DNA from: Paramarasmius palmivorus
Lineage: Eukaryota; Basidiomycota; Agaricomycetes; Agaricales; Marasmiaceae
Length of the DNA: 64,000 bases
NCBI GenBank assembly: GCA_037176845.1
Contig: JAYKXP010000021.1
Span: 124,001-188,000 of the forward strand
Direction: 5' to 3'
The notes under the pieces are model-generated. The model saw nothing but the letters and a program-made list of their open reading frames with translations. It was not told the DNA's origin and did not search any database. Below, in pieces: positions 4,971 to 54,286 of this stretch. Made by a program: the position numbers and the translations under genes. The number at the start of each line of letters is the position of its first letter. The first letter of the stretch is position 1.

Positions 4971-6633
4971 ATGGCCGCAGTACAGGAAGCTCGTACTCCT
5001 GAGCAAGCTGCCCAGATTCTGGAGCTCTTGCTCAGCGTACCATTGGCAATATTCTCGGTGAGTGTCTTGCCGTTGAGAGCTTCAAATATTGAATGTGCTG
5101 GTCAAGATCGTTGCGTTCACCTATGGCATGTACCCGGTCTCGTGGGGATATTCTGAAACAGCACTGATTGAGCAGTCTAGGGTTCTACGTACTGCTTTAC
5201 ATCGCATCGCTATACGTTCTCAGCATCAACCGACGGGAGAAGCGATACACAGCCTTCCATATCGTTTCATCGACTGTGTTATTCCTTCTTGTCACCGGCC
5301 TTGTCATTTGTCGACTTGTCAGTGAAGGTGTTGGACTAGTCGGGCTTTTGATGTACATTCTATCGCCTATGTTCGACCCATCTACAAACTTGGACTTATC
5401 GAGGCAATTTCAGTATGTGTTTAATCAATTGGGGATTGATAGATTATTAACAACAGCGACTTTGATTAGAGAGGCCGGGTTTTGGATGTTCACTCTGACC
5501 AAGTGAGTGCTATTAACCCGTGGAAAAAGTTAGAATTGACATTTGTTACGAAGCACTATGGCTGAAATTATTCTTGTACGTTTGTGTTATTCCTGCAATG
5601 CTAAAGGATTAACGACCTTCCGCGCGTTTAGATCCATCGTACCTGGATAGTTTGGGGCCACATCAAAAAGATTATAATCATTCCTGTACTTCTCATGACC
5701 GCGAATCTTGGTGCGCTTGGTGATCATTCTGGAGCTGAGGTATTGACAAAGGATACAATAGCATTGGGGATCATAGGACACCTGCTCACAAAGCTCCGGG
5801 TGACTCAAACAACGGAGGATGACTTGAAAGTATCGGCAAGTATCCTGTTCTCAGGAGTGTTCATGGGTGTCAACATTTTGACCAACGTGTTGTTGACTGG
5901 ACTTATTGGTATGGTACATTTTCTCTGATCACATCTTGTGTCAAGTAATAAATTGCCTTACTAGCGGGTCGTATTTGGTACATCAGCCGCATGAACCGCA
6001 TTATCGGCGGAGAATCAAGGAAGCGATATTCTGCTTTGATCGCGATCATGTACGTACTGCCACTCACGCTATGTTCTCGTTCTAATTCTACTTGTTCATC
6101 AATGAATTCTAGACTCGAATCAGGAGCTCTCTATCCTCTCTTTCTGATTGCGAACATTATCCTCTCTTTTGGTCAATTTCCCGCGAAAGATCGCCTAAAT
6201 GTTGCCCATGCAGAAGGAATTGTATCGGACCTTTTAGGTATCATTGCAGTGAGATCTCTACCTAGACATCGACTTGACTCCTGCTGAACACACGTCTCCA
6301 TTATAGGCCATTGCCCCCACACTGATAATTGTTCGTGCAGGGCTAGGAGTTAGCATCGAACAAGTAAATACTTCCTCTTCCTCTTCGCAGCCATACGTAC
6401 CAGTCTCTACCTTTCGTGCCGCCAATAGCGAAAACAGAGCACCGCCGACTACCCTCAGTCTGCATGCGAGGTCATCCAGCTATCCTTCAGTTTGGTCAAG
6501 AGACTCCTGGAGAGGTGCAGAAGGATCGCAAGGCGGTCAAGTTGACTACCTGGGTGTTCCAATTGGAAACGAGAAGTTCGACGACAGCGTCTTTAGTTAC
6601 CATTATAGAAGGAGCATCGGCGTAGCCCGATAG
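4971..6633 (+). CDS. Seven-TM membrane protein, agaricomycete-expanded family
   Basis: Multi-exon gene. Exon 1 is 4971-5057, a 23-nt microexon follows at 5107-5129, and exon 3 starts at 5176. Later exons carry the markers of a membrane-protein family I associate with agaricomycetes: IHRTWIVWG before a TM, AGRIWYISR after the fourth or fifth TM, LESGALYPLFLI in the next, and IAPTLIIVRAGLG in the last helix. A Ser-rich cytosolic tail ends at TAG 6631-6633. All junctions I checked keep the frame, so the gene looks intact. Family members have a GPCR-like topology, but no ligand or activity is known to me. The start is the first ATG that gives this frame. Confidence 0.7.
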
Positions 6634-7027
6634 AGATTGTATTTATAAGTTTGATGTATTAACTGACCCCTATCATGACACACGCACAACGGGATTGTCC
6701 CAGCAAGTTCAAAGAAATTCTGTGAACGTCAAATGTATACGTGAAAATGGCGAGTTAGAGCTACATACATGATGCATCATTCAAGCCACAGTGTTCATTG
6801 AGTACCGCGTAGAGTTGGGTAGCGTTCGCAAACATGGAAGTGAAGAGAACTAAGGGATCTCCATTTAGCATGATCGGACGCCAGCTTTGCATGTCGAGGA
6901 AAACCTTACATGTGTAGCTAAAATAACGAGCGTCGGTCTCAGTCTGTACAAGTAAAGAAGAGCGCGTATCAGTAAACATTGATCGTGATTCATCAGACTC
7001 GGAGGGTATGGTTCTAACGAGTATGAT

Positions 7028-7348
7028 TTAAGCCAGAATACGATCTAGCAAGGTCAGATGTCGTGCCATGACGAAGATCCCAATGATAGCACAGGTTGCT
7101 TTACTCGGCTTAAATGAAATATTCGGAATGGCATTCGGGTTACTAAAAACAAAGATAGTTTAGTTTCGTCTTGTGAGCAACTTGTGAGTTGCAACCTTGT
7201 GAAGAACCGTGATATAACCGGCAATTGTGCTTGCGTGAAGATGAAAACATATAACGAGAGAGACATACCGCAGCGTTTGGAAAATACTGACATGCCCTGG
7301 ATCTGCTCTGAGCAATGAGTGGTGCAAGAACAAGGTTGAGAAGGCCAT
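7028..7348 (-). CDS. Small hypothetical protein (doubtful)
   Basis: Minus-strand ATG at 7348 opens MAFSTLFLHHSLLR. A GTATGT...TTTAG intron then joins a second exon ending RHLTLLDRILA at TAA 7028-7030. The product is ~65 residues with one hydrophobic stretch (TCAIIGIFVMA). No family is recognised. It may be part of a larger damaged gene, since another short minus ORF (6761-6979) lies downstream. Confidence 0.22.
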
Positions 7349-9012
7349 AAACTTCTGGTCCGCGGGACGGTTTATGTCACGTGGATATCGGGGACCTGGT
7401 CTCTCGGAGGAGTCCCTAGCGCTTCGTGATGCCTCTTTACCACTTCTTCTTGACTTCTTCGCTAGTACTTCGAGCTCCTTTGGTTTGTACCCTCAAAGAT
7501 CCCTGAGATTTGGTCAGGAGATGCTGTAGAGCCAACATAATGGTAATGGGAACTCCACACATGGTCTATGGTGTGTAACATGTTTTACTCGCTCGCGGCG
7601 ATGACTCATTGCGAAGTGCAGCAAGCAGCATCGATCTACTAGGATGGTGCACAAGCCATCGATAACATCTTGTATTCTCATTCGTTTGAAGATGTCATAT
7701 GGAACACTGAAACGGTTCACGATTTTATGAGCGTGAGGCTGGAAGTGGGACGACTTTTCTTCGAGAAGATCTGTGCAGGTGCTTTTATATATCCTCCGGA
7801 GTTCTTCATTTTCTTACCTCTCACTCTCTATCCATAGACTTTTCCATCTCCTCAGCAAGATCCATCCGAAGTGCCTACGAAACCGAAGATATTCATATGT
7901 ATGCGCCCCACCACGTCATTGCGAGCCACCCAGCATCGTATGATTAGAGTATATATCAATCACGGACACGGAGTTTCCTTTTCTTTCGAACAATGAAAGA
8001 GCTGGTCAACAGCAGTCACCTGTAGGACTAGTCCGGGATTGGCAGTGCTGACGCTTGGTGCGTCGGCGGTACCGACCCCCGACGGCCTCGTGAGTCAATG
8101 ATGAATGCAGTATATAAAGGTCAGGGATCCGCCCATGTTGCTTTACCTCCCGCTCACCATTACACCGTCTGTCTTTCAGCAGTGTCTACTACCAATTAAA
8201 GTTGTTCTCGGGCACGTTCCGCTTTGCATGATCATACTGCGTTATGATATTCGGCAAGTACCGCTGCAAAGATCTCTGCCGAAGAAGACAGAAAGACGCT
8301 GGGGAACTCGTTCAACCTTGTGCCTTTGGACAATGCGTTTGATCCCCGTTGATCTTCTCGACCTTCAAATACGAGGCTTCCATTCTCCCGAGGCGTCCGA
8401 AAATCTCTTGAACACGCGGCGGAGACTGGATGCTGTGGGAACGGGCGTCTGTTGAAATTCTCAGCCATACACCAAGCTATTTTTGCCATTGCCTTATCAG
8501 CCCTCCCGAGGGCATCTTTCCCCTCGACACCGCTTGTTCCTCCGTATCACTATCAGCTGATGATTGTCGGGAACAAAGAAGATTGCGGCATGTGTTGTTC
8601 TATGGGCGCCAGGCGCTAAAAAAATGCGGGTACCTGCCTTATTCGGGTGTCTTGGAGCTCCCGCCGCGTCGGCGGTGGGGCGGGATTTCTATTTTGGAAA
8701 CAAGAAGCGTCGGGATAGTGTCAACTGATCGCGTTCACATGGTCGCCAACGCGCTCGGGGTCCCTCGGGTTTCATGTTTAGCGCCCAGATATGCACCCCA
8801 AATCCGTTTTCATTCCTCGCAAAAACGCCAACCTTCGACGTTCGGGACGCCATATATCGCATTCTGATGGGTTGCAAACGTCCAAGGCTGACGGGAGAAA
8901 GCTGTAGATAAAGGTGTTGAAGATGTTTCGTGAGGTAGCGACGCCCATCTGCCTCATGTCAAGGATGCGGTGCGGTGTCTGATGGTGGGCGTCTGTCGGA
9001 GTTTGGAACGCG
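7349..9012. other. Long intergenic stretch upstream of the bZIP gene
   Basis: No supported gene. It is GC-richer near 8640-8680, with a CCGCCG...CGGCGG inverted repeat. A perfect Gcn4-type site TGAGTCA lies at 8091-8097. ORFs at 8105-8455 and 8430-8867 have arginine-rich, domain-free translations and look like chance reading frames. Confidence 0.4.
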
Positions 9013-26983: not shown

Positions 26984-27813
26984 ATGAAAGCCAAACTTTC
27001 CCTCATCCTCGCAGCTCTCCTCTCCGGTCACGGTACGTCCTTCCTCGTAGTCCATCAGCACTCGGCCTAATCACCTCTCCAGTTGGGAGAGCCTCGTTCA
27101 TCCCCCGAGCAGCTCCAGGTACCCAATTCGTAACTGGCCCTTGTACTAGTGATATTGAATGCGAAACCGCCTGCTGTGGATTCAAAACTGGCAGGTGTGC
27201 CGGCCGTATTATCGCACAGACGCGTGATGGCGGTTGCGGATTCGGAGATGCCCAACCAAACGATGGGACTCAAATAAAGGGGGCGAATCCAGAGCTTCCT
27301 CCGGTTCAAGCGAGTACTATCCTCCCGTCAGTCGAAGCAATTACATCCCTTGCTCCGACAGCAACAGCAACACCAGTGCCGAATGTGAAGCCTCCGGGAT
27401 CCGTTTTCGTGACTGGGGATTGTATTGCGGATAGCGAATGCGAGACTGGATGTTGTGGATTTAATACGGGAAAGTGTGCCGGCCGTATTCTCGCACAGAC
27501 GCATGACGGCGGTTGCGGATTCGGAGATGCCCAACCAAACGATGGAACTCAAACAAAGGGGGCAAATCCAGAGGTTCCCCCGGTTCAAGCAAGTACTATC
27601 CTTTCGCCAATCGAAGCAGCTACATCCATTGCTCCGACAGCGACAGCGACACCGGTGTCGAATCTGAAGCCTCCGGGATCCGTTTTTGTGACTGGGGATT
27701 GTATTGCGGATAGCGAATGCGAGACTGGATGCTGTGGTTTCAATTCGGGCAAATGTGCGGGACGTATCGTGGCACAGACGCGTGATGGAGGGTGTGGATT
27801 TGGTACACGATGA
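26984..27813 (+). CDS. Secreted protein with three tandem BAS2-like six-Cys domains
   Basis: Exon 1 is 26984-27032 and exon 2 is 27083-27813, giving 259 residues. A signal peptide (MKAKLSLILAALLSG) is followed by three copies of a ~45-residue module with six Cys (pattern C-x5-C-x3-CC-x6-C-x11-C). Each has the core CCGF, a CAGR(I/V) segment and (T)RDGGCGFG. The modules match the biotrophy-associated secreted protein 2 (BAS2) type of small Cys-rich fungal protein. Modules 1 and 2 end GDAQPNDGTQ; module 3 stops at GFGTR. The linkers are Thr/Pro/Ala-rich (SIAPTATATPV) and likely O-glycosylated. BAS2-like proteins usually hold one module of about 100 residues, so the triplication is unusual. Role unknown; BAS2 itself was found as a protein secreted during plant infection. 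Confidence 0.78.
27115..27810 (+). repeat. Tandem ~279-bp coding repeat (three units, last partial)
   Basis: The sequence CCTCCGGGATCCGTTTT recurs at 27391 and 27670, exactly 279 bases (93 codons) apart, and the DNA between is almost identical. The first unit is more diverged. This is internal duplication of domain plus linker in the secreted-protein gene. Confidence 0.8.
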
Positions 27814-29750: not shown

Positions 29751-32700
29751 TCACTTCTCCAAACGCAGACAGTAGTCTGGATTACCCGCCGGGTTCTATA
29801 GAGAAAATCAGTTTCGGTTTCGTCTCCCCGAATATCACAGACTTACCAAAGCCCATTTGGGGAACGGCCGCTCAGTTCCACTGGCACCTCCTACAGCGAA
29901 GGTCCAGATGAAAATCATGATAGAGGTACCGCCGTCCAAGGCAGCACTCATCAAAAAGCTTGAAAACATAGGGCGTCAGAACTAATGTACTACCCGAAAG
30001 ATAACTTGCTCTTACTTGTATTTCCTGAACCAGGTCGCTCGGTACCTTGGGAACAATTAATTAGCTTGATGCCTTCGGATAAACGGAAGAGCTGCTCACT
30101 TTCTGAGATAGTACTGCGAGAAGACGGCCAGCAGGAAGGTAGTGAAGACACTAGAGTTGATACCAACAGAGAGGTAACCAAGCTCGGCGACAAGGATGGG
30201 CGTGAAGACACGGTCGAAGCCAAAGTTGGGCCACTTCCTGTGTAAGAGCCAGAACGGCAGTGGGAAACCGAGACCAGCGATAAGCATGTAGGGCACGAAC
30301 TGTTGTGCAAGTTAAACGATGAATGAGAACCAGATGTAACACAGAATGACGTACAGCGTATGGGGTTCCAGGAGCGTAGAGAGGCTTGCCGAGAGCACCC
30401 CATGCAATAGCCGCACTGTTGTACGATTGCACCTGCTGACCAGACCAAACGTTTGAACTTCAAGAGCGGGTCAGTCTTGACTGCAACATAGTTGCGAATT
30501 ATATTCCACCCACCCTTGAACTTGGAGCAGGATTTCTCGCTGTCCGTCGATGACACTCTGTGGATGACCCCCTTTAGCACTCGGTTGACGGTAATCTACG
30601 AGCTGCTTACCCTCATTATCAAGAAGTTCAAGAGACCGCCGATTACAGTACCGATCATTTGGACGTTGAAGGTGACCATTGGAGGAATCTTGGTGTATTG
30701 ACCCTATCCACGTATGATTCAGCGAATGCCCCAATACCGCAGCGTTACGACAACGTACCATCTTGAGATCAGTCATCAAAGCAAGAGCCTGAACGACGGG
30801 ATTGTAGCCGTAAACTGTGAAGTACATGTTTGCAACAGGCTTTCCGGGAATCAACGCTCCTCCAAGCATCTGAATCATGTTCTCGATACTAGGTGCGTAT
30901 CCGACAGTAGCGCTGAGCTATACGAGACATAAGGTTCAGTCCATCCAACAAGAGGACACACATACCGTTCCGATGACAGGGACAAAGATCCAAGCAAAGA
31001 TGAGGGCGATGATGAAGGCCCACCATGGTAAACCAGAATGAGCACCGTAAGCGCAGCCGATACCGAGACCAGCACAGGCTACGAGGATACCGAGGTACCA
31101 CCAGTTCGGGACTTCCTTGTAGACCTTCATCTTGCGGTAGTGTGGGTCATCGCAATCCTTAGTCTGATCATAAAACGTCAGCGAGGTATATTTCCGAAGA
31201 AAGAATGCTTCATACCCTGCTGTCCCGAATAATGTTCCAGACTCTAGGTCCGTGCCAAACAATGACTGACGGCAATACAGTCAATAATGAGACCGAGATA
31301 AAGGCGTCGACTTACAGTGGGTAACAGAAGCTATGGCCGAAAAGTCAGTAATCATTTAAGGAGGCCAATAACTGTGCCATACCTCCGATATACATAGTAC
31401 GACTGATTTTGTACAAGAGCTGAGAAGCAGCGTACCAAGGAAGACCCTAATAAGCCGGAGAATGAGCATTCAGTATACACAAATTCAGTCAAGCGTACCT
31501 CCTGCGCAAGCTTTTCCTCATTCAAAGTAAAGTCGTCGTTCAGGATCCTCAGCTGATCATACTTGGTTCCTATACTCACAAATCAGACATAGTTATAATC
31601 CAAACCAGGACCATAACTTACCGTTCTGATAGAACAACAGTTGACTGAGGAAGGGGAAGTTCTGGGCATGCCAAGTGTTGGTGGCGTATGCAGCACAGAA
31701 TGCAATACTATGCGGAGCATGAGCATTGAGTTCACGTTAAAAGACCAGGGTTCCCACTCACATGCAAACGGCACATCCAGCGTAGAGTGACAGCTGCGTT
31801 GACAGCGGAGTGAATAGAGCGCCCAATGTGCCTCCACCAGATCCGACATAAGCCCAGTCGAAACACAAGGAGAACATCCCCAAGCCTTCGTTTCCAGCGG
31901 CACCACCTATTTAGGTCACAAGTGAGCAAGGGTGTTATGAAATGGAGCGAACGAGACTAACCAAAGATACGGGTGAACCATGCGCTCTTCTGGTTGGCTA
32001 GACAGAAGATACTGACACCGGTGAGAGTTCTAGAATCGGAAGTGAGTACCGTTATCGTCTCGGTGAAGAAATAAGACACACGGGGCGATATATTCAGGGA
32101 ACCATTCCCAGATAAAGATGCCGATAAAAGTGAACCAGAAGAACTTGAGACGTTTCTTCTGCATGACCATGGCCTTTCCACGATGAAGAGCATCGAAAAG
32201 TTGAACAGTCGGCATAAGCTGTGGATAAAATGCGAATGTTGGATACACCAAAAAAACTCGCATGATACCTATTAGGCAGAGTCAACCGTGATTCAAAGCG
32301 ACGAAGGAGTTAGGCTTACCGGCGAGACCATATCCGATAAGCTGAGATGCGATGAGCCTGTGCAAAACACGACGTTATTTCACGGGAATTACACGAGAAA
32401 AGGCACCCCATACGTGAAAATACCGATAGCAGCGTTAGGCTTGACATGGTAGTACAGATCCTGAGCTGCGAAAATACTGATAGCCTTGGCTGAATGCGAT
32501 GCAGTAGAAGACATGATGGTGATAGCGACGTGCTCCTTCATATCTAGAGAAGGTTTAGCAAGGATCTCTGCATCATGTACAAGGAAACTTACTGAATGGG
32601 TTGCCGTTCATAAACCTCCAGAATGCAGTATCGGCAGTCTTGACGCGAGCAGAAGGAGAAGGACCTGGGATGACGGTTTCCATACCCTATCATCGCTCTG

Positions 32701-37524: not shown

Positions 37525-38310
37525 TCACTGTTCCCCTCGTTTGATCCAAATGTTCTTGTTGTCGAAAGCGTCGGCATCGACATCAGCCTAATAAGGAGTG
37601 TCAAACAGGAAGATTGATCTGAATAAAGGGTACATACCTCGCGTTTGATCCAGATATTCTTGTTGTCGAAAGCGTCAGCATCCACATCAGCCTGATGATG
37701 AGTGTCAGAGGAAAAGATTGATTTTCTGAATATATGGTATAGACTACCTCGCGCTTGATCCAGATGTTCTTGTTGTCGAAAGCATCTGTGTCGACGTCAG
37801 CCTGGTAAAAAAGTATCAGTACGAAGCTTTGATATCCTGAATAGATGGTGCATACCTCGCGCTTGATCCAAATGTTCTTATTATCGAAAGCATCGGTGTC
37901 GACATCAGCCTGAATAACGTCAATGATACGGTCGATGTTTCATTCAACTGGTTGGTACCTCGCGTTTTATCCAGATGTTTTTGTTGTCGAATGCGTCGAC
38001 GTCCTGTAGAACAAGTTTAGATCGCAATTAGGTCAATGAAGCGTCAAGCACCCTCACTTCGCGCTTAATCCAGATCTTCTTGTCATCGTACGCATCAACA
38101 TCAACCTCGAGTACAAGCTCAGCGAGTATCGACAGTTTGCAGACGACCGGAGCTCACCTCACGTTTGATCCAAATGTTCTTGTTGTCAAAAGCATCAGTA
38201 TCGACGATGGCCTAAAAACAGTCAGTGAGTCGTCCTTCATTTCGTGCGCGTGTGCATACCTCGCGTTTGATCCAGATCTTGCTGTTGTCCCAGTTGTCAA
38301 CCTCAGCGGG
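37525..38310 (-). repeat. Eightfold exon repeat, one peptide unit per exon
   Basis: The block encoding FDNKNIWIKRE recurs at each exon. Introns between units are 48-57 nt. The last three introns on the coding strand share a TATTCAG-containing 5' part, so exon and intron were copied together. Unit 3 (16 codons) and unit 4 (15 codons) lack one Asp-x pair or more. Confidence 0.85.
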
Positions 38311-38373
38311 GGTGGGAGCTGCAGCGCAAGCCGCTACGAAAACAAGGACGGATACAAAGACAGACGAACGCAT
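37525..38373 (-). CDS. Kex2-processed repeat peptide precursor (candidate dikaritin/ustiloxin-type RiPP precursor)
   Basis: Start at 38373, stop at 37525, eight exons: 38260-38373, 38158-38211, 38058-38105, 37959-38003, 37856-37909, 37748-37801, 37638-37691, 37525-37587. A signal peptide (MRSSVFVSVLVFVAACAAA) precedes eight repeats, each ending in Lys-Arg, a Kex2 site. The consensus unit is EADVDADAFDNKNIWIKR. The invariant core is aromatic-Asp-x-x-x-Ile-Trp-Ile, with Phe in six units, Trp in the first and Tyr in the third. Every internal exon encodes exactly one unit and both splice sites are phase 0, splitting after the Glu codon that follows KR. The protein is ~160 residues, ends KRGEQ and has no CaaX box, so it is not a basidiomycete pheromone. 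Such precursors beside a UstYa gene are the hallmark of dikaritin RiPPs (ustiloxin, epichloecyclin). The final cyclised product is inferred, not shown. Confidence 0.82.
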
Positions 38374-38422
38374 CGTTGGTTGAGAAGACAGCTGTTAATG
38401 AGGTTCTAGGTCTGGTTTTCCG

Positions 38423-38429
38423 TTATATA
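38423..38429 (-). promoter_or_regulatory. TATA box of the repeat-peptide gene
   Basis: TATATAA on the minus strand, ~50 bases before the ATG at 38373, inside the 551-bp region shared with the divergent UstYa-like gene. Spacing fits a short leader. Co-regulation of the two genes is inferred. Confidence 0.45.
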
Positions 38430-38924
38430 CCTTCTTCAAGAACCTGCTCCGCCTAATTCGGGGGCCTAAGATCCTGATAATACGTTCAGATTGTTGCGCT
38501 AGATTGTGGCCACATTGCGTGCAATCCAGTTACGATGGGGCCAGAGTGCCCTATCTTGGCTTTAGAGATCACCAAAATGAAGATGAATATCATAGCACTC
38601 ACATGGTCCTAACAAGGGCCATCGAACGATACATGCAAAAGTAGCGCATCAAGCCAATTGCCAAGGAGATATCCCGACAAAGCTGTGATGATGCGGAGTG
38701 ATATCTGGAAATTTGTGTTCACCAAGAACAAGCTCCGTGGTCATAGTTGCGCTATCTTGCAAAGTCCGTTAGAATCTTTCAGGAACTGGCGGCTGCGCAC
38801 ATGCTCACGTACCTCATTGATTGATATCTCAAAACCGAGCGAGTTCGCGGAAACAACAAACCGCTAATTCCTTCGTCATATCCATCAATTATCTACTCCT
38901 CGTCAGCTACCACCTTCTCTTCCT

Positions 38925-39923
38925 ATGGCTCGCAAGCTCCCTGACTCGGATGGTTATGCCCCGCTGCTTCAAGATGAGACCGACATTGAGCTAAAGCCTG
39001 CAAAGTCTGTTCAGCAGAGTCGAAACTCCGGCTGCCGTATCAAGAACGCGATCATCGTTGTCCAGTCTATTGTTATTCTCGTGCTAATCCTGGTGACGAT
39101 GAGCAGTTACTCGTGGAGGAAGAGCGGCCCCTTGTTGTACTGTAAGTCGACATTTCCTGAAAAGAATCTCCGCACTCACGAGACCATAGCACCAGTCAAC
39201 CATCTTCTCGAGGAGAGGGTCGTCAAATTCCACAGTGCTATCGGCAATGATACCACGATATATATGGGGGAGCCATCTCCTGAGGTCGACGAGGCATGGG
39301 ATGAGCTGTATGGATGTAAGTCTCTAAGCAAAGTCAATACCGCACGGGATCACTTACCAGTTCTATCGGCAGTCGGCGTGAACAAAATTTCGAAGCATGA
39401 GGCCGACCAACTACCGCTCAAGACCGTTCGCATTCCAAACGACCCGAGTCACTACATTGTAGAGCTAGACGTGTTTCATCAGCTGCATTGCCTGGTGAGT
39501 AGATTCTCAGAACTCACGACTCCTTAGCGACCTGATCCTTTGCGTAGAACATCATTCGCAAAGCCCTTCATCGAGACTATTATCAACAACTGCATGTCCA
39601 TAATGGACATACGATGGAGAGTAAGCAAGATGAAGATGAGCACATTGCTCATTGTATCGACCATCTGAGACAGAGTATCATGTGTGCTTCAGGTATGTGA
39701 CTTTGGCTCTAGTCCTTGCGTGGCCGACGCCGAATCTGCGACCACAGATGTTAGCACTATCGTATGGCAATGGATCCCAGAGAGAAATCGAACCATGGGG
39801 CGTTCGGGTGTGCCTCATACGTGCAGGGATTTTGAAAAAATTAGCGAGTGGGCGGGTAGACCAGAGAACCAAATTCGGTTTGCGGATTTCGACTTTGATG
39901 TAAAGCCTCCCGAAGACGATTGA
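38925..39923 (+). CDS. UstYa-family (DUF3328) oxidative cyclase-like protein
   Basis: Exons 38925-39494, 39548-39692 and 39748-39923 give 296 residues. There is a cytosolic N-terminus, one TM segment (about residues 42-60, AIIVVQSIVILVLILV...), then a lumenal domain. Both family signatures are present: HQLHC at about 185-189 and the second HC pair in AHCIDHLRQSIMC at about 225. The C-terminus ends FDFDVKPPEDD. UstYa/UstYb proteins are needed for side-chain macrocyclisation of ustiloxin-type peptides in the secretory pathway, and the paired His/Cys motifs are thought to form the active site. Its promoter faces the Kex2-repeat precursor 551 bp away, which strongly suggests that peptide is the substrate. 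UstYa-like proteins also occur in non-RiPP clusters, so the pairing is the key evidence. Confidence 0.88.
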
Positions 39924-47168: not shown

Positions 47169-49278
47169 TTAATGAGCCATCCACTGCAGCACCCAAATAA
47201 GGACAACGAAGACTCCAGGGGCACTGGTATGGGACGACAACATCAATGCACCAGACACAAAGACACTTCTCCCCAAAGGCTGATTGTTCCTATCAATGGC
47301 CCTCATCGCAAAATGGGAGTACCCATTATTCTTCGTTGATATCGTAATCGTGGTTTCAAATCCAGTTTTAGTTCGGTTGTAAAGGGAGACAGCTCCTGAT
47401 CCACTTCCGTCAGAGGCTCCCAAAAGCTCCCATTTATTGATTTCGGTGGCTCCGTTCCACGATGCGTGAACGCTGAGGAGAGCAGATGCACCCGTCACCA
47501 GTTGAATCGACGGCGTCGTGCTAGGATATCCCGTCCAGTTGTACCGCAATGTCCTATCTGCAGCACTGTCAGCGTAAACCTAGGTACATAGAGTGGCACC
47601 TACACCCTGAGACTTCGGTGTCTGTACCAAATTGTGCAGTCCAAAGCAAATCTCCTGTTGAAGTGTACTCTGCGAACCAAGGAATCGAGCCCCACCTGTT
47701 TCAAAGGTACCCATTTCAATTTTGGCATGAGAAGTCTCTTATCATACAAAACACATAGACGTACCCAACCAAGACGTCTCCATTTGGCTGTAGCTGCACA
47801 CTGCCCTGACTTTCAGAAACCGCGGGACTGAAGGGCACGTAATCTTGTGCTAAAGTCGCTGACATGGTCGAGAAGTTCAAGTCAATAAGCAACCCTCGTG
47901 CACTCTCCTCGTTGTAGAGGGCATACATTCCTCCATTGTCAAACAAGCTAGAATCATGACCTCGTTGGCGACAAAACCCAAACTCGTTAAAAGGAGGGAC
48001 TGACCTGAGCCTTCCAGCCGAGTCATTTAATGAAATCCATCGAGCATCATGCTGAAAACTGAATTCGGTTCCTGTTCCCATCGTAAACGAGGTGTTGCGG
48101 CCTCCAAGTCTCCATATGATGTTCCCGTTTGAGCCATCCAGGTAGTAAAGAGCACTACAATGCCGCGAGGATATCAAAAAGTTTCCGAAGTCGTCTTTCT
48201 CGATCGAGTTGATGTGCTATGAAGTGGGCGATAAGCACTTATACTAGAATTGACTAGACGGGGAGATAAAGACGCACAAAATAGTCCCAAGCGTTGCTCG
48301 TATCTGTACCATAATTGGCAACCGGATAATAACAGTCACTGGGGTCAACGTGGTCGAGAGATTTCCAGGTGAATAAAGCCTTTCCTGGGCGAACGCAACA
48401 GGTTAGTATATCCATCGTGGAGGATCAATAGGAACTAACCACTGCTTATATTGAGCTCCTGCATAACAGAGTCTCTAATCCATCCTGATGATGGCCCTCC
48501 ATGACGGCTGAGATCTAATGACTTGGTTTCATACGCGGGAAGTAGTGCCGTATTGTTGGTGGTGATACCCGTCTGATCGTGTCAGGGGTTAGCATTATGA
48601 TAGTGCACTGGAAAATTTGCTCACTTCATGGAAATCGGCTAATGTGTGCCCAAGCTCACCTTCGAGATCGGTTGTGCTGATGATGCAGTAGGTCAGTTTC
48701 ATCCTCTAGGCATGAGAAGAAAAGAACGCGTACTAGTTGGCAACCACCTCGTAGTGCTGATTCAGCAAAACATGGTATCCAATACCAATACCCTCTCCAG
48801 TCCAGTCGCCCTGCCACATCGATATGTGAGGTTCACCCATGTACGTTACGACCTGGAACGCCATTGCTTCGCCATGTTCATTCCCATTCCAAACCATAGT
48901 CCCATCTTGGTCATAGATGACTGCACCGTACTGAGTGATTCCCGTTCCTAGTTCCAAAATTAAGTACACAAACAAAGGTACGCCGGAAAGATAATGTACC
49001 TCGCGGAGCCGTGAACAAGTACCCTGGTGTTACTCTCCGAGTGCGGTTTCGTGGGATAACAAAGTTCCATGCTGCACTGAATAGAACGTGAGAAGAGGAA
49101 GAGTGCGGAGGCAGAATATGACATACGGAGTGTAATCGCTAGAAAAATAACTCTGAAAGGGCGCAATACCTAAAACACCTGCCGTGTACTCGTTGCTTTC
49201 GAACAGAACAGAATCTGCTGCTACCAGACGGCTGAGGGACGCTAGCGCGAGAGACCACGTCCATATGAAGTTTGCCAT
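47169..49278 (-). CDS. Arylsulfotransferase (ASST)-like secreted protein
   Basis: Start MANFIWTWSLALASLSRLVAA (signal peptide) at 49278, several exons, stop at 47169. Beta-propeller-type motifs of the ASST-like family are seen: GTGITQYGAVIYDQDGTMVW, PHISMWQGDW, then YLDGSNGNIIWRLGG and FSFQHDARWIS, the conserved W-R-L-G-G ... Q-H-D-A-R core. A C-terminal hydrophobic stretch (GVFVVLIWVLQW) suggests a membrane or GPI anchor. Bacterial relatives move sulfate between phenols. The fungal proteins are numerous and mostly uncharacterised, so the reaction is inferred by family only. Confidence 0.75.
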
Positions 49279-50401: not shown

Positions 50402-53400
50402 TCAATCCTCCAGGCGCAAGCAATAGTCAGGGTTGCCTTTCGGGTTCTGATAATGACAATGAGTGTCCCTTACACCCTCGAAGGAGGAATAGAACTTACC
50501 AACGCCCAGTGTGGGAATGGTCGCTCCACGCCGCTCGCACCTCCGACAGCGAATGTCCAGATGAATATCATGATCTATTATTCGAAATCGGTCACTACTG
50601 CAGATGGTTCCTCTCGGAGTGGAGACACTTACCGAAGTTCCACCATCTAGAGCAGCGCTCATCAAAAAGCTATAACCGCTGTCAGAATATGCATCAGAAC
50701 GACTAGTACCACTTAGGCTCACTTGTATTTACGGAACCAAGTAGCGCGGTATCTGAACGTCATATATGAACGTTTGAGTGGATTATCAAAGATAAGACAC
50801 TCACTTTCGCAAGTAGTATTGAGAGAAGACAGCCAACATGAATGTGGAGAAGATACTCGAGTTGATACCAACGGCGAGGTATCCAAGCTCGGCTGTAAGA
50901 CGACGATTATGAGTTTCCAATGTCGTAGTCGGAGCAGCATACGCACCAACTAGAATCGGAGTGAAGACAAGATTGAATCCAACTTTGGGAAACTTCTTGT
51001 GAAGTAACCAGAATGGTATGGGGAAACCGAGACCAGCGAGTAACATGTATGGCACAAACTACAAAGCGAAGATCAGCGAAACATCTTCCGTTCGGGGCGA
51101 GTTCACATACGCCATATCGCGTTCCCGTTGCATACAGCGGTTTACCCAGCGCACCCCACGCAACCGCCGCGCTGTTGAAGGATTGAACTTGCTGGCCAGA
51201 CCAGACATTCTATCACGTGACAGGATAAGCCACCTTCAACTAATGGAATTGTTGAGCACTCACCGATCCTTGAACTGCTTTGAGAATCTCTCTGTGCGTT
51301 GGAACAATGCTGGCCATGATTACGTAGTTTAAGATACCTTCAAATAGAAAAGGTGAGGAGCCTCTAGGTGAATGACATCGAGAAACGCACCTCCAACGAT
51401 TGTTCCAACCATTTGCATCGTAAAAGTGACTCGCGGTGGTAACTTGGTGTATTGACCCTACAGCAATCTCGTCAGCGTAAGACATATGGAAGTGTGGACT
51501 GCGCCCACAATCTTCAAGTCCTGCATCAGCTTGTATGATTGTATGACAGGGTTGTATCCGTAGGCAGAGAAGTACATATTGGCGACAGGCTTTCCCGGGA
51601 CAACTGCACCACCAACCATCTAAGAACTTTATTTCAACGTTACGATGCATTTTAGACCGAGATCGTCGTACCTGAATCATAACTTCAACACTGGGTGCGT
51701 ATCCGACGGTAGCATTCAGCTAGGGCATTGTTTACCATCGTTTATTCAGCGAATCAACAGGAGATACTCACTGTACCAATGACAGGTACAAAGATCCAGG
51801 CGAAAATTAGGGCCACAATCAACGCCCATGCAGGCAGGCCGGAAGAGGCGGCGTATGAAGTTCCGATTCCAATACCAGCGCAGACGACAAAAAGACCAAG
51901 ATAGATCCAATGGTTGACTTCTTTATAGATCTAAAACAAGGCCGTCAAAACTGAGCTGGTCACGGAAAGAGTCAGGATGTATACCTTCATCTTCAAGAAG
52001 TGGGGGTCAGTGCATTCCTAGATATCACACAGTTTAAGCATATCCTGTCGGTAGAAGGGGGTATATCTTACAGAGCGGTCCCTGAGGATAGACCACATTG
52101 TAGGTCCATGCCAGATTAGGAAGTGCTATAAAACCAGTCAGCCGTCGTGAACTCGTTTCCGGTGGTGAAACCCACGGTAATGGCAGCTAGGCATACTCAG
52201 TCAGCATTAGCGGAGTTGTTTCTGGCCACGGCACTCACCTCCAATATACATCGTTCGACTAATCTTGAAAAGTAGCTGCGAAGCAGCATACCAGGGGAGG
52301 CCCTGCATCCAATGGAATCAGATAGTAGCTAATGCCAAGGCTAGACCAAACGTACCACTTTCTCCAGCTTCTCATAATCGAGTTCAAGCTTGTCATTCAA
52401 GATCGCGAGCTGGTCGTATTCAGTACCTAATAGAAAGCCGCATCAGGATACGTAAAGTAAAGCGTTTCTCAAGGTGCTTACCATTCTCGAAGAACAGCAA
52501 TTGAGTCAAGAAGGGGAAGTTCTGAGCGTTCCAGGTGTTCGCAGCATAGGTAGCGCAGAATGCAATCCTACACGTAAATGAGATCAGTAACCACACATTC
52601 AAACCTCCAGAGGTCTACTTACATACAGACCGCGCATCCGGCGTACAAAGAAAGCTGCGTCGAAAGAGGAGTGAACAAAGCTCCCAAGGAGCCGCCACCC
52701 GAACCAACGTAGGCCCAGTCCAGACATATCTGATGATGAGCTCGAGTGAGCGCTTCTCGCGAGAAGTTCTGTCTACTTACGGAGAAGGTGCCTAGGCCTT
52801 CATTACCAGCGGCACCACCGAATACCCTAGTGAACCATGCACTCTTTTGGTTTGCTAAACAGAAGATGCTGATACCGGTGAGAGTTCTAGTATCCGTCTT
52901 GAGTGAAGGTCTCGCTTCCTGGGGTCCTATTTGTCCACTTACGGTGCAATATATTCCTAAATCCGCAGTATGAGACCCCATGATACCCAAAATGACATGA
53001 CATGACTTACGGGGAACCACTCCCAGATGAAGATGGCAATGAACACGATCCAGAAGAATCTTAGACGCTTCTTTTGTCCGATAGCTTCGTGACCTCTATG
53101 GAGAGCATCAAAAAGCTGCACAGTGGGTATGACTTGCGGATAGACGGCGAAGGTAGGGTAGACGAGCCATTTGCGTAGGATACCTAGACGCAAGTGGGGT
53201 AAAAGATCAATCCAATCAATTGCTGCAGGGAGACACTCACCGGCCATACCATAACCGATTAGTTGTGTGGCAATCAAGCTGTAAAAGCCATCAAGGTTAG
53301 GATCATTAGCGGAGTACTCTGCATATGGAGGACGCAACATTACTTACGTGAAGATACCAACGCCAGCATTCGGTCGCACATTATAGTACAAGTCTTGAGC

Positions 53401-54286
53401 TGCGAAGACACTAATCGCTTTAGCTGACAGCGACGCCGTGGAAGCCATGATCGTGATTGCGACATGCTCCTTGAGGTCTACGAAAAATTTCAGAGGATTG
53501 TCAACTATGGCGCAAGAGATAAACCCACTGAAGGGACCAGGATTGAAGAACCGCCAAAACTTGGTATCCGGTGTCCGAAACCTGGCAGACGAGCTTGGAC
53601 CAGGTAAAACTTCCTCTAATGCCTAATATCTGTGTTAAGCAGGTGGAAACGAATAGGCCCAAATGACCAAAGCCTACCCTTCCAAGAATCCATGAAATGA
53701 TCTATCAAGTCTCATCAGCATGTGGACATTCCTGTCAGAAATGGGACCAACCTGAATGAATAGAACGCTGACGTCGATCTGTAGCACGTGTCAGGAGGCG
53801 GAAAACGTTAGTTCGGGAATTTTGCGTACCGTTTGTGGGCGGAAGTACTAGCGATCTGACGTGAGCGAGGACATGAGTGTGAAAGAGATAAGACCCACGA
53901 AGATTTGCCCCAGGACAGCACCGAAACATGACAGGCCAAGACCCAAGAACCATAACCTGAAAGTGAAGATCGGTAGTGTGGGGTCATCTTCGAGAGAGAC
54001 CAGACGAGTTGCGTAGTCAGCGTCGGACACTAACATAACGGTGAGCTCATGGTCTAGAGAGCGAGTAGTCGAACATACCAATAGGTCTCTCCTTGCCATC
54101 TTCTCCAAGGTCGATAAGACGCACATCAGCGTAGACTTCCTCGACTTCCTCGCCCAGACCCAAGGCACCAGTTGGAGGGACTTTTTCATCACTGAAAGAG
54201 TCTGAGTGTCTTGGCTCCTTGGCAGCATCCTTTTCATCATACACCGGAGGCTTGGCCTCGCTTTGAAGCGTCGGTAGTGTCGCCAT
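50402..54286 (-). CDS. OPT-family oligopeptide transporter (copy 2)
   Basis: Start MATLPTLQSEAKPPVYDEKD at 54286, many short exons, stop at 50402. The order of conserved segments is the same as in copy 1: RLIDLGEDGKERPIG, SLEDDPTLP, GLGLSCFGAVLGQIFV, YPTFAVYPQVIPTVQLFDALH, NQKSAWFTRVFGG, AYVGSGGGSLGALFTPLSTQ, PVIGTLNATVGYAP, PGKPVANMYFSAYGYNP, and GASGVERPFPHWALNPKGNPDYCLRLED at the end. The predicted role is proton-coupled peptide uptake. The exon plan matches copy 1, but introns and the N-terminal ~60 residues differ. The frame was intact at every junction checked. Confidence 0.9.

What the first reader, a model, noticed from the sequence alone, without database searches (positions are those of the whole stretch)
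37525..39923. Two-gene dikaritin-like RiPP locus: Kex2-repeat precursor divergent from a UstYa gene
The precursor has a signal peptide and eight units, each ending in Lys-Arg. Its neighbour, 551 bp away and divergent, carries both His/Cys motifs of the UstYa (DUF3328) family. That pairing defines ustiloxin-, phomopsin- and epichloecyclin-type pathways, which are best known from ascomycetes. The core here (aromatic-Asp-x-x-x-Ile-Trp-Ile) matches none of the cores I know. A new cyclic peptide family in a basidiomycete is a reasonable expectation.
Basis: partly seen in the sequence, partly recalled or inferred. Interest (0 to 1): 0.95.

Follow-up and report, generated by a model that had tools for sequence, protein, structure and literature searches.

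The report
Mushroom peptide genes, one core per exon
A mushroom genome carries a gene for a secreted peptide built from eight near-identical short units, each on its own small exon, beside a gene for a probable peptide-modifying oxidase, and the same genome holds several more such gene pairs with different peptides, which points to a little-explored family of modified peptides in mushrooms.

Summary
On the minus strand, 37525-38373 encodes a 161-aa secreted precursor with eight units ending in Lys-Arg; 551 bp away and divergent, 38925-39923 encodes a 261-aa UstYa-family protein with both HxxHC motifs. The fungus is Paramarasmius palmivorus. Among units, synonymous sites are near saturation (pS 0.74), replacement sites are not (pN 0.088).

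The locus is not alone: 6 of 17 stretches fetched around other UstYa genes of this genome carry a divergent precursor with repeated short exons; two of the six look like one duplicated locus. Cores differ, but a Trp stands in 61 of 61 units checked at five loci.

Best reading: Kex2-released peptides oxidised, perhaps cross-linked at Trp, by the adjacent UstYa. Expression, cleavage and cyclisation are untested. UstYa-linked KEPs in Basidiomycota are on record (103 of 1680), one Trp-bearing type included (PMC7329392), so this is a new variant of a known kind. I found no description of this core or of the one-core-per-exon design in the passages I could read.

The parts
37525..38373 (-). Precursor gene, 8 exons, 161 aa: leader plus 8 Kex2-type units
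38260..38373 (-). Exon 1: leader and first, divergent unit (APTPAEVDNWDNSKIWIKRE)
38158..38211 (-). Exon 2: unit AIVDTDAFDNKNIWIKRE
38058..38105 (-). Exon 3: unit VDVDAYDDKKIWIKRE; acceptor ends in GAG, start of exon uncertain
37959..38003 (-). Exon 4: unit DVDAFDNKNIWIKRE
37856..37909 (-). Exon 5: unit ADVDTDAFDNKNIWIKRE
37748..37801 (-). Exon 6: unit ADVDTDAFDNKNIWIKRE
37638..37691 (-). Exon 7: unit ADVDADAFDNKNIWIKRE
37525..37587 (-). Exon 8: unit ADVDADAFDNKNIWIKR, then GEQ and stop
38374..38924 (.). 551-bp region between the two divergent genes, presumed shared promoter
   Evidence: promoter role is inference
38925..39923 (+). UstYa-family (PF11807) gene, 261 aa, exons 38925-39141, 39190-39315, 39373-39494, 39548-39692, 39748-39923
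29892..32275 (-). OPT oligopeptide transporter gene (extent of profile hits); possible, unproven partner
50627..53475 (-). Second OPT transporter gene (extent of profile hits); possible, unproven partner

Best explanation
A biosynthetic locus for a modified secreted peptide. The precursor enters the secretory pathway by its leader; Kex2 cuts after each Lys-Arg and a carboxypeptidase trims the basic residues; a Ste13-like dipeptidase may remove the Glu-Ala that starts five of the seven released fragments. The UstYa protein, presumed to be a membrane-anchored dicopper oxidase, oxidises each core, most likely making a cross-link that involves the constant Trp and another side chain of the segment aromatic-Asp-x-x-x-Ile-Trp-Ile. 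Shown here: gene structures, repeats, leader, constraint on the cores, adjacency, and recurrence of the architecture at other loci of the genome. Inferred: transcription, cleavage, the pairing of enzyme and substrate, the oxidation, and the place of any cross-link. Each core sits on an exon whose length is a multiple of three, between phase-0 introns, so cores can be gained, lost or skipped without breaking the frame.
For: Gene models. Constraint on cores at three loci: window pS 0.74/pN 0.088, C1 0.82/0.014, C26 0.91/0.037. Chains of three or more repeated units in 6 of 17 stretches of 8.3-9.9 kb around other UstYa genes, and at only one place in the 64-kb window. With UstYa places sorted after the fact by motif (LDVFHxLHCL seen at 9 places, C56 added on its score, against seven loci without it), repeats are at 7 of 10 against 0 of 7, window included (Fisher p 0.006). 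On the coding strand, judged by leaders, gene models and at three loci pN/pS, the repeat genes run away from the UstYa gene at all seven places. Whole-genome pattern V-D-x-[D/N/A/T]-N-x-x-W: 38 of 52 hits are in three clusters, at C1, C26 and C84, from which the pattern was made; the other 14 are single, with 11 hits for the reversed control, so no cluster was seen away from a UstYa gene. P0121, a metagenome protein with a leader, has six D-x-x-N-x-x-W units.
Against: No transcript, peptide or mass was seen. At the first aromatic position 6 of 8 units have Phe, 1 Tyr and 1 Trp, so a Tyr ether as in ustiloxin or asperipin-2a cannot be made in most units. Trp is not enriched in UstYa-linked KEPs at large: 20.5% with a DUF3328 neighbour against 24.5% without (PMC7329392). 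11 of the 17 other stretches show no repeat chain, among them three with the LDVFHxLHCL type or C56. No tyrosinase, methyltransferase or peptidase domain was found in 27-55 kb, by a scan that reads exon by exon and can miss split domains. The window's own core does not fit the D-x-x-N-x-x-W pattern of the other loci exactly. The C26 precursor has mostly lost dibasic sites. UstYa-family enzymes are also credited with hydroxylation and chlorination (PMC12048977, passages).
Confidence: 0.7

Rival explanations
1. A linear secreted signalling or pheromone-like KEP: Kex2 and Ste13 release unmodified peptides, and the UstYa neighbour acts on something else.
For: Five of the seven fragments that follow a KR start with Glu-Ala, a Ste13-type site. 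KEP peptides detected in four Agaricomycetes were linear or minimally modified (PMC9769878, abstract, section 3 and the first third of section 4). Of 76 KEPs like the putative basidiomycete pheromones, 17 had a DUF3328 neighbour (PMC7329392, passages), so that neighbour does not exclude this reading.
Against: Same architecture at other UstYa places of this genome. Nearly all alpha-pheromone KEPs lack a DUF3328 neighbour (PMC7329392).
Confidence: 0.17
2. UstYa modifies the core without closing a ring, for instance by hydroxylation, dehydrogenation or halogenation of Trp, Phe or Ile.
For: DUF3328 enzymes are credited with hydroxylation and chlorination (PMC12048977, passages); titles in a reference list name dehydroamino-acid formation by UstYa proteins in phomopsins and a copper-dependent halogenase (PMC12186524, passages).
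Against: Two conserved parts in the core, aromatic-Asp and Ile-Trp-Ile, would suit a ring, but this is only suggestive.
Confidence: 0.25
3. Structural peptides of the Rep1 type, forming fibrils on hyphae.
For: Secreted Kex2-cut repeats occur in Rep1 of Ustilago maydis (PMC9769878 section 3).
Against: Cores of 13-16 residues against 37 in Rep1 (PMC6339444, passages); UstYa gene adjacent.
Confidence: 0.04
4. A chance or decaying repeat with a spurious reading frame.
For: The precursor is not among the proteins scored.
Against: pN far below pS in the coding frame only; regular phase-0 splice sites.
Confidence: 0.02

Closest known systems
Dikaritins (ustiloxin, phomopsin, asperipin-2a, victorin)
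   Same: Leader, repeated cores with dibasic Kex2 sites, nearby DUF3328/UstYa gene; asperipin-2a likewise uses a single UstYa-type gene, in a cluster of four genes (PMC6514808, passages).
   Different: Basidiomycete; core with a constant Trp and mostly Phe instead of the Tyr-centred cores; each core on its own exon; no tyrosinase found nearby; product unknown.
Epichloecyclins (GigA)
   Same: Secreted multi-core precursor cut at KR (PMC6514808, passages).
   Different: Cross-link between Tyr and Ile (PMC9233826, passages); ascomycete. The exon structure of gigA was not in the texts I could read.
Basidiomycete KEPs (Le Marquer 2019, Umemura 2020, Vogt 2022)
   Same: Secreted Kex2 repeat proteins; 103 of 1680 basidiomycete KEPs have a DUF3328 gene within 15 genes; type P-3 (Fonsecaea, Cladophialophora, Galerina, Psilocybe, Coprinellus) has W with P in its repeats and a DUF3328 neighbour in 4 of 7 KEPs (PMC7329392, passages).
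   Different: No passage that I saw describes this core or one core per exon. Their logos and supplementary tables were not readable, so identity with one of their types cannot be ruled out.
Plant burpitides (BURP-domain copper cyclases)
   Same: Copper-dependent oxidative cross-linking of aromatic side chains (PMC12186524, passages).
   Different: A different enzyme family in that paper's own list; the likeness is of mechanism only.

Membership tests
Dikaritin-type fungal RiPP | DUF3328/UstYa protein, the class-defining enzyme (as cited in PMC12048977) | tested here: met
   PF11807 hits over the curated cut-off; annotated relatives
Dikaritin-type fungal RiPP | Two HxxHC motifs in the UstYa protein | tested here: met
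   Residues 150-154 and 187-191; conserved in all or nearly all of 21 aligned proteins
Dikaritin-type fungal RiPP | Precursor with N-terminal leader and repeated cores | tested here: met
   Eight units and a hydrophobic leader; no signal-peptide predictor was run
Dikaritin-type fungal RiPP | Dibasic Kex2 sites between cores | tested here: met
   KR in 8 of 8 units; cleavage itself not tested
Dikaritin-type fungal RiPP | Tyrosinase, methyltransferase, several DUF3328 proteins, transporter or peptidase (the older, wider definition quoted) | tested here: not met
   One UstYa gene; no tyrosinase, methyltransferase or peptidase found in 27-55 kb by an exon-wise Pfam scan; OPT transporters present. 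Working clusters that lack some of these are known
Dikaritin-type fungal RiPP | UstYa-dependent oxidative modification of the released core | not testable with these tools
   Needs LC-MS and gene removal
KEX2-processed repeat protein (KEP) | Secreted, repeated units flanked by Kex2 sites | tested here: met
   (by sequence)
Ascomycete alpha-pheromone precursor | Ste13 dipeptides, pheromone core, no DUF3328 neighbour | tested here: not met
   Glu-Ala on 5 of 7 fragments, but a UstYa gene is adjacent and the core has no resemblance that I could see to the motifs quoted
Borosin / MSDIN (amatoxin) RiPP | Methyltransferase-fused precursor, or cytoplasmic precursor cut by a prolyl oligopeptidase | tested here: not met
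   161-aa precursor is a leader plus Kex2 repeats only; definitions from passages

The most novel reading that the evidence does not exclude
The window belongs to a class of mushroom RiPPs whose UstYa-made ring closes on Trp rather than Tyr, encoded by cassette genes with one core per symmetric exon, expanded in a single genome into at least six loci with different cores, and overlooked because such small exons escape automatic annotation.
Probability: 0.3. Interest if true: 0.82.

Novelty: new variant of a known kind. Interest (0 to 1): 0.6.

Why it matters
In the review passages that I saw, dikaritins are listed as ascomycete products (PMC9233826, PMC12048977). A basidiomycete precursor-enzyme pair ready for testing would carry that chemistry into mushrooms. 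A Trp in place of Tyr would mean a different cross-link for a copper enzyme family whose scope is still being worked out. The one-core-per-exon design offers a reason why such genes are missed: surveys start from predicted proteins, and this precursor had no match among the proteins scored. It also poses a testable evolutionary question: how symmetric exons multiply and drift at silent sites while their peptide is held constant.

Tried and rejected
Chance repeat: rejected by pN/pS and shifted frames. Copies of this core elsewhere in the genome: the protein search and the K-N-I-W-I-K-R pattern hit only this locus. A looser pattern, F-D-[D/N-type]-K then 3-6 bases then Trp, gave 61 hits against 21 for its reversed control; the six in the window are the only hits closer than 1 kb to each other, and one single hit is the C99 unit of L026. 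Database relatives: 6681 candidates, none at E <= 10, for the precursor; a profile of five precursors gave one hit, P0121, with only the 8000 best candidates scored. Both searches admit proteins of 0.55-1.75 times the query length only, so longer relatives would be missed. Single pattern hit at C36:6020: no repeat, taken as chance; the like hit at C154 was not read. Solved structures: no sequence relative of the UstYa protein. One search on epichloecyclins returned unrelated papers. The first scans for Kex2 chains found, besides the window, the C99 locus and a weak chain in L023; DNA repeats and 12-mer chains showed the others, whose cleavage residues differ.

Cautions. The whole-genome core pattern was made from three of the loci that it then found; only the absence of other clusters is informative. 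The two UstYa types were sorted after I had seen which have precursors, and the 14-kb radius of the OPT test was chosen after seeing positions; both probabilities are guides only. A draft of this report gave Trp in 60 of 60 units from searches that partly required Trp; I recounted with patterns that do not.

Full report
WHAT IS THERE. The minus-strand gene at 37525-38373 has eight exons. The spliced frame, checked against the window, gives 161 aa: a hydrophobic leader ending in AAP, eight units that all end in Lys-Arg, and a three-residue tail. Seven of seven introns are GT-AG, in phase 0 and 48-56 nt long; one acceptor is GAG rather than YAG, so exon 3 may start elsewhere. A simple gene finder that knew nothing of the repeats recovered seven of the eight exons as I read them and placed the start of exon 3 differently. 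The six internal exons are all multiples of three bases. On the plus strand at 38925-39923 lies a five-exon UstYa gene; its protein is identical to VNI00_006755 of Paramarasmius palmivorus, on a contig of the same length as the window's.

IT IS UNDER CONSTRAINT. Between the eight units 74% of synonymous sites but 8.8% of replacement sites differ; one base out of frame the contrast is reversed, two bases out it is weak. The same holds at two more loci, C1 (14 units, pS 0.82, pN 0.014) and C26 (16 units, pS 0.91, pN 0.037), though there the units were picked by patterns that fix most residues, which lowers pN. In the window, introns are 57% alike on average (49% when shuffled), internal exons 76%. 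The units look like old duplicates whose peptide is conserved.

IT IS ONE OF A FAMILY. The genome gave 36 exon-level UstYa hits, which I merged into 17 loci, the window's included. I fetched 17 stretches of 8.3-9.9 kb around the other 16 loci, one of them in two parts, and scanned all of them for chains of repeated units: six have one (C31, C85, C1, C84, C26 and the second C99 place), eleven do not. C31 and C85 look like one duplicated locus: same UstYa scores and same units. The units are VDDANIGWKDEPV (C1), V-D-x-x-N-x-x-W-[TSHV]-I (C84), GVDLDNKQWGL (C26), VDVD..N.NQDWW-KR and variants (C99) and IFAETAWED and variants (C31, C85). In my gene models the introns are in phase 0 in 13 of 14 cases at C1, 14 of 15 at C84 and 8 of 8 at C26; at C99 in 5 of 7, in a model that is less certain. 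These genes run away from the neighbouring UstYa gene. With units found by parts other than Trp, Trp follows at the same offset in 14 of 14 (C1), 16 of 16 (C26), 18 of 18 (C84; a nineteenth match overlaps one of these) and stands in 5 of 5 at C99; with the window's 8 of 8 that makes 61 of 61. At C31 and C85 it stands in 5 of 5 and 6 of 6. Not counted among the six: the first C99 place (L026) has a leader and a unit FDNKTWFKR, the nearest thing to the window's core; its near-copy at C199 (L028) looks broken; C56 (L029) has a leader-like start only. For these three and C31 I looked for leaders on the divergent strand alone.

LINKAGE. The pattern V-D-x-[D/N/A/T]-N-x-x-W gave 52 hits in the genome: 10 at C1, 16 at C26 and 12 at C84, the loci from which I made it, and 14 single ones elsewhere, against 11 for the reversed pattern. 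The window's own core does not fit the pattern exactly (it has D-N-K-N-I-W), so its kinship with the others rests on gene architecture, leader, Trp and neighbour. Outside this genome, a metagenome protein (P0121) has a leader and six D-x-x-N-x-x-W units; its surroundings were not available.

NEIGHBOURS. Exon-wise Pfam scans of 27-55 kb found, besides UstYa, two OPT oligopeptide transporters (about 29.9-32.3 and 50.6-53.5 kb), a DUF7025 domain (about 43.6 kb) and an arylsulfotransferase domain (about 47.8-48.2 kb). Of 14 OPT places that I tallied, four lie within 14 kb of a UstYa gene (two here, and C31 and C85, likely one locus), against 0.10 expected. The radius was chosen afterwards; I take it as a lead.

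HOW IT PROBABLY WORKS. From the known logic of dikaritins (PMC9769878 section 3; PMC6514808 passages): leader, Kex2 cutting after Lys-Arg, trimming, oxidation by UstYa. UstYa enzymes are described as dicopper oxidases that make, for example, the Tyr-O to Phe-C-beta ether of asperipin-2a (PMC12186524, passages). Here 6 of 8 units have Phe, 1 Tyr and 1 Trp at the first aromatic position, while Ile-Trp-Ile never changes. Trp is therefore the likeliest redox-active residue and the nearby aromatic residue or Asp its partner. That step is inference; no expression, cleavage or modification was shown.

WHAT IS KNOWN. KEPs with a DUF3328 neighbour are on record in Basidiomycota: 103 of 1680, against 1647 of 5372 in Ascomycota (PMC7329392, passages). 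One such type, P-3, shared by Galerina, Psilocybe, Coprinellus and two ascomycete genera, bears W with P in its repeats, with a DUF3328 neighbour in 4 of 7; its sequence was not readable here. W is not commoner in KEPs with that neighbour (20.5%) than without (24.5%). The name dikaritins came with 27 phomopsin-like precursors from Dikarya (PMC7329392 citing Ding et al.). Reviews list dikaritin products as ascomycete (PMC9233826, PMC12048977, passages). In ten searches of an open-access library, from listings and the passages I opened, I saw no characterised basidiomycete UstYa product, not this core, and no one-core-per-exon precursor. Supplementary tables could not be opened.

VERDICT.

Noticed in passing
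window 27157-27800: Tandem repeat of 279 bp, 2.3 copies, 86% matches; no gene identified.
   Followed up: no
window 29892-32275 and 50627-53475: Two OPT oligopeptide transporter genes lie on either side of the locus, both on the minus strand; another lies about 7 kb from the UstYa gene at C31 and at C85.
   Followed up: partly
L026 2300-3900 and L028 about 6000-8000: Two similar UstYa places (C99 and C199); the first has a leader and an FDNKTWFKR unit, the second copy of that stretch looks broken by indels.
   Followed up: partly
L025 7010-8433: Precursor with 16 VD-x-DN-x-x-W units, two per exon in most exons, with hardly any dibasic site: another protease or monobasic cutting would be needed.
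   Followed up: no
L030-L037: Seven UstYa loci without the LDVFHxLHCL motif, most with another first HxxHC motif and with two or more hits each, show no repeat precursor in the stretch read; role unknown.
   Followed up: no
window 47760-48219: Arylsulfotransferase (PF14269) domain on the minus strand, about 8 kb from the UstYa gene.
   Followed up: no
L023, L024, L025: Three precursor loci show two UstYa genes each, by separate hits and motifs, where the window shows one.
   Followed up: no
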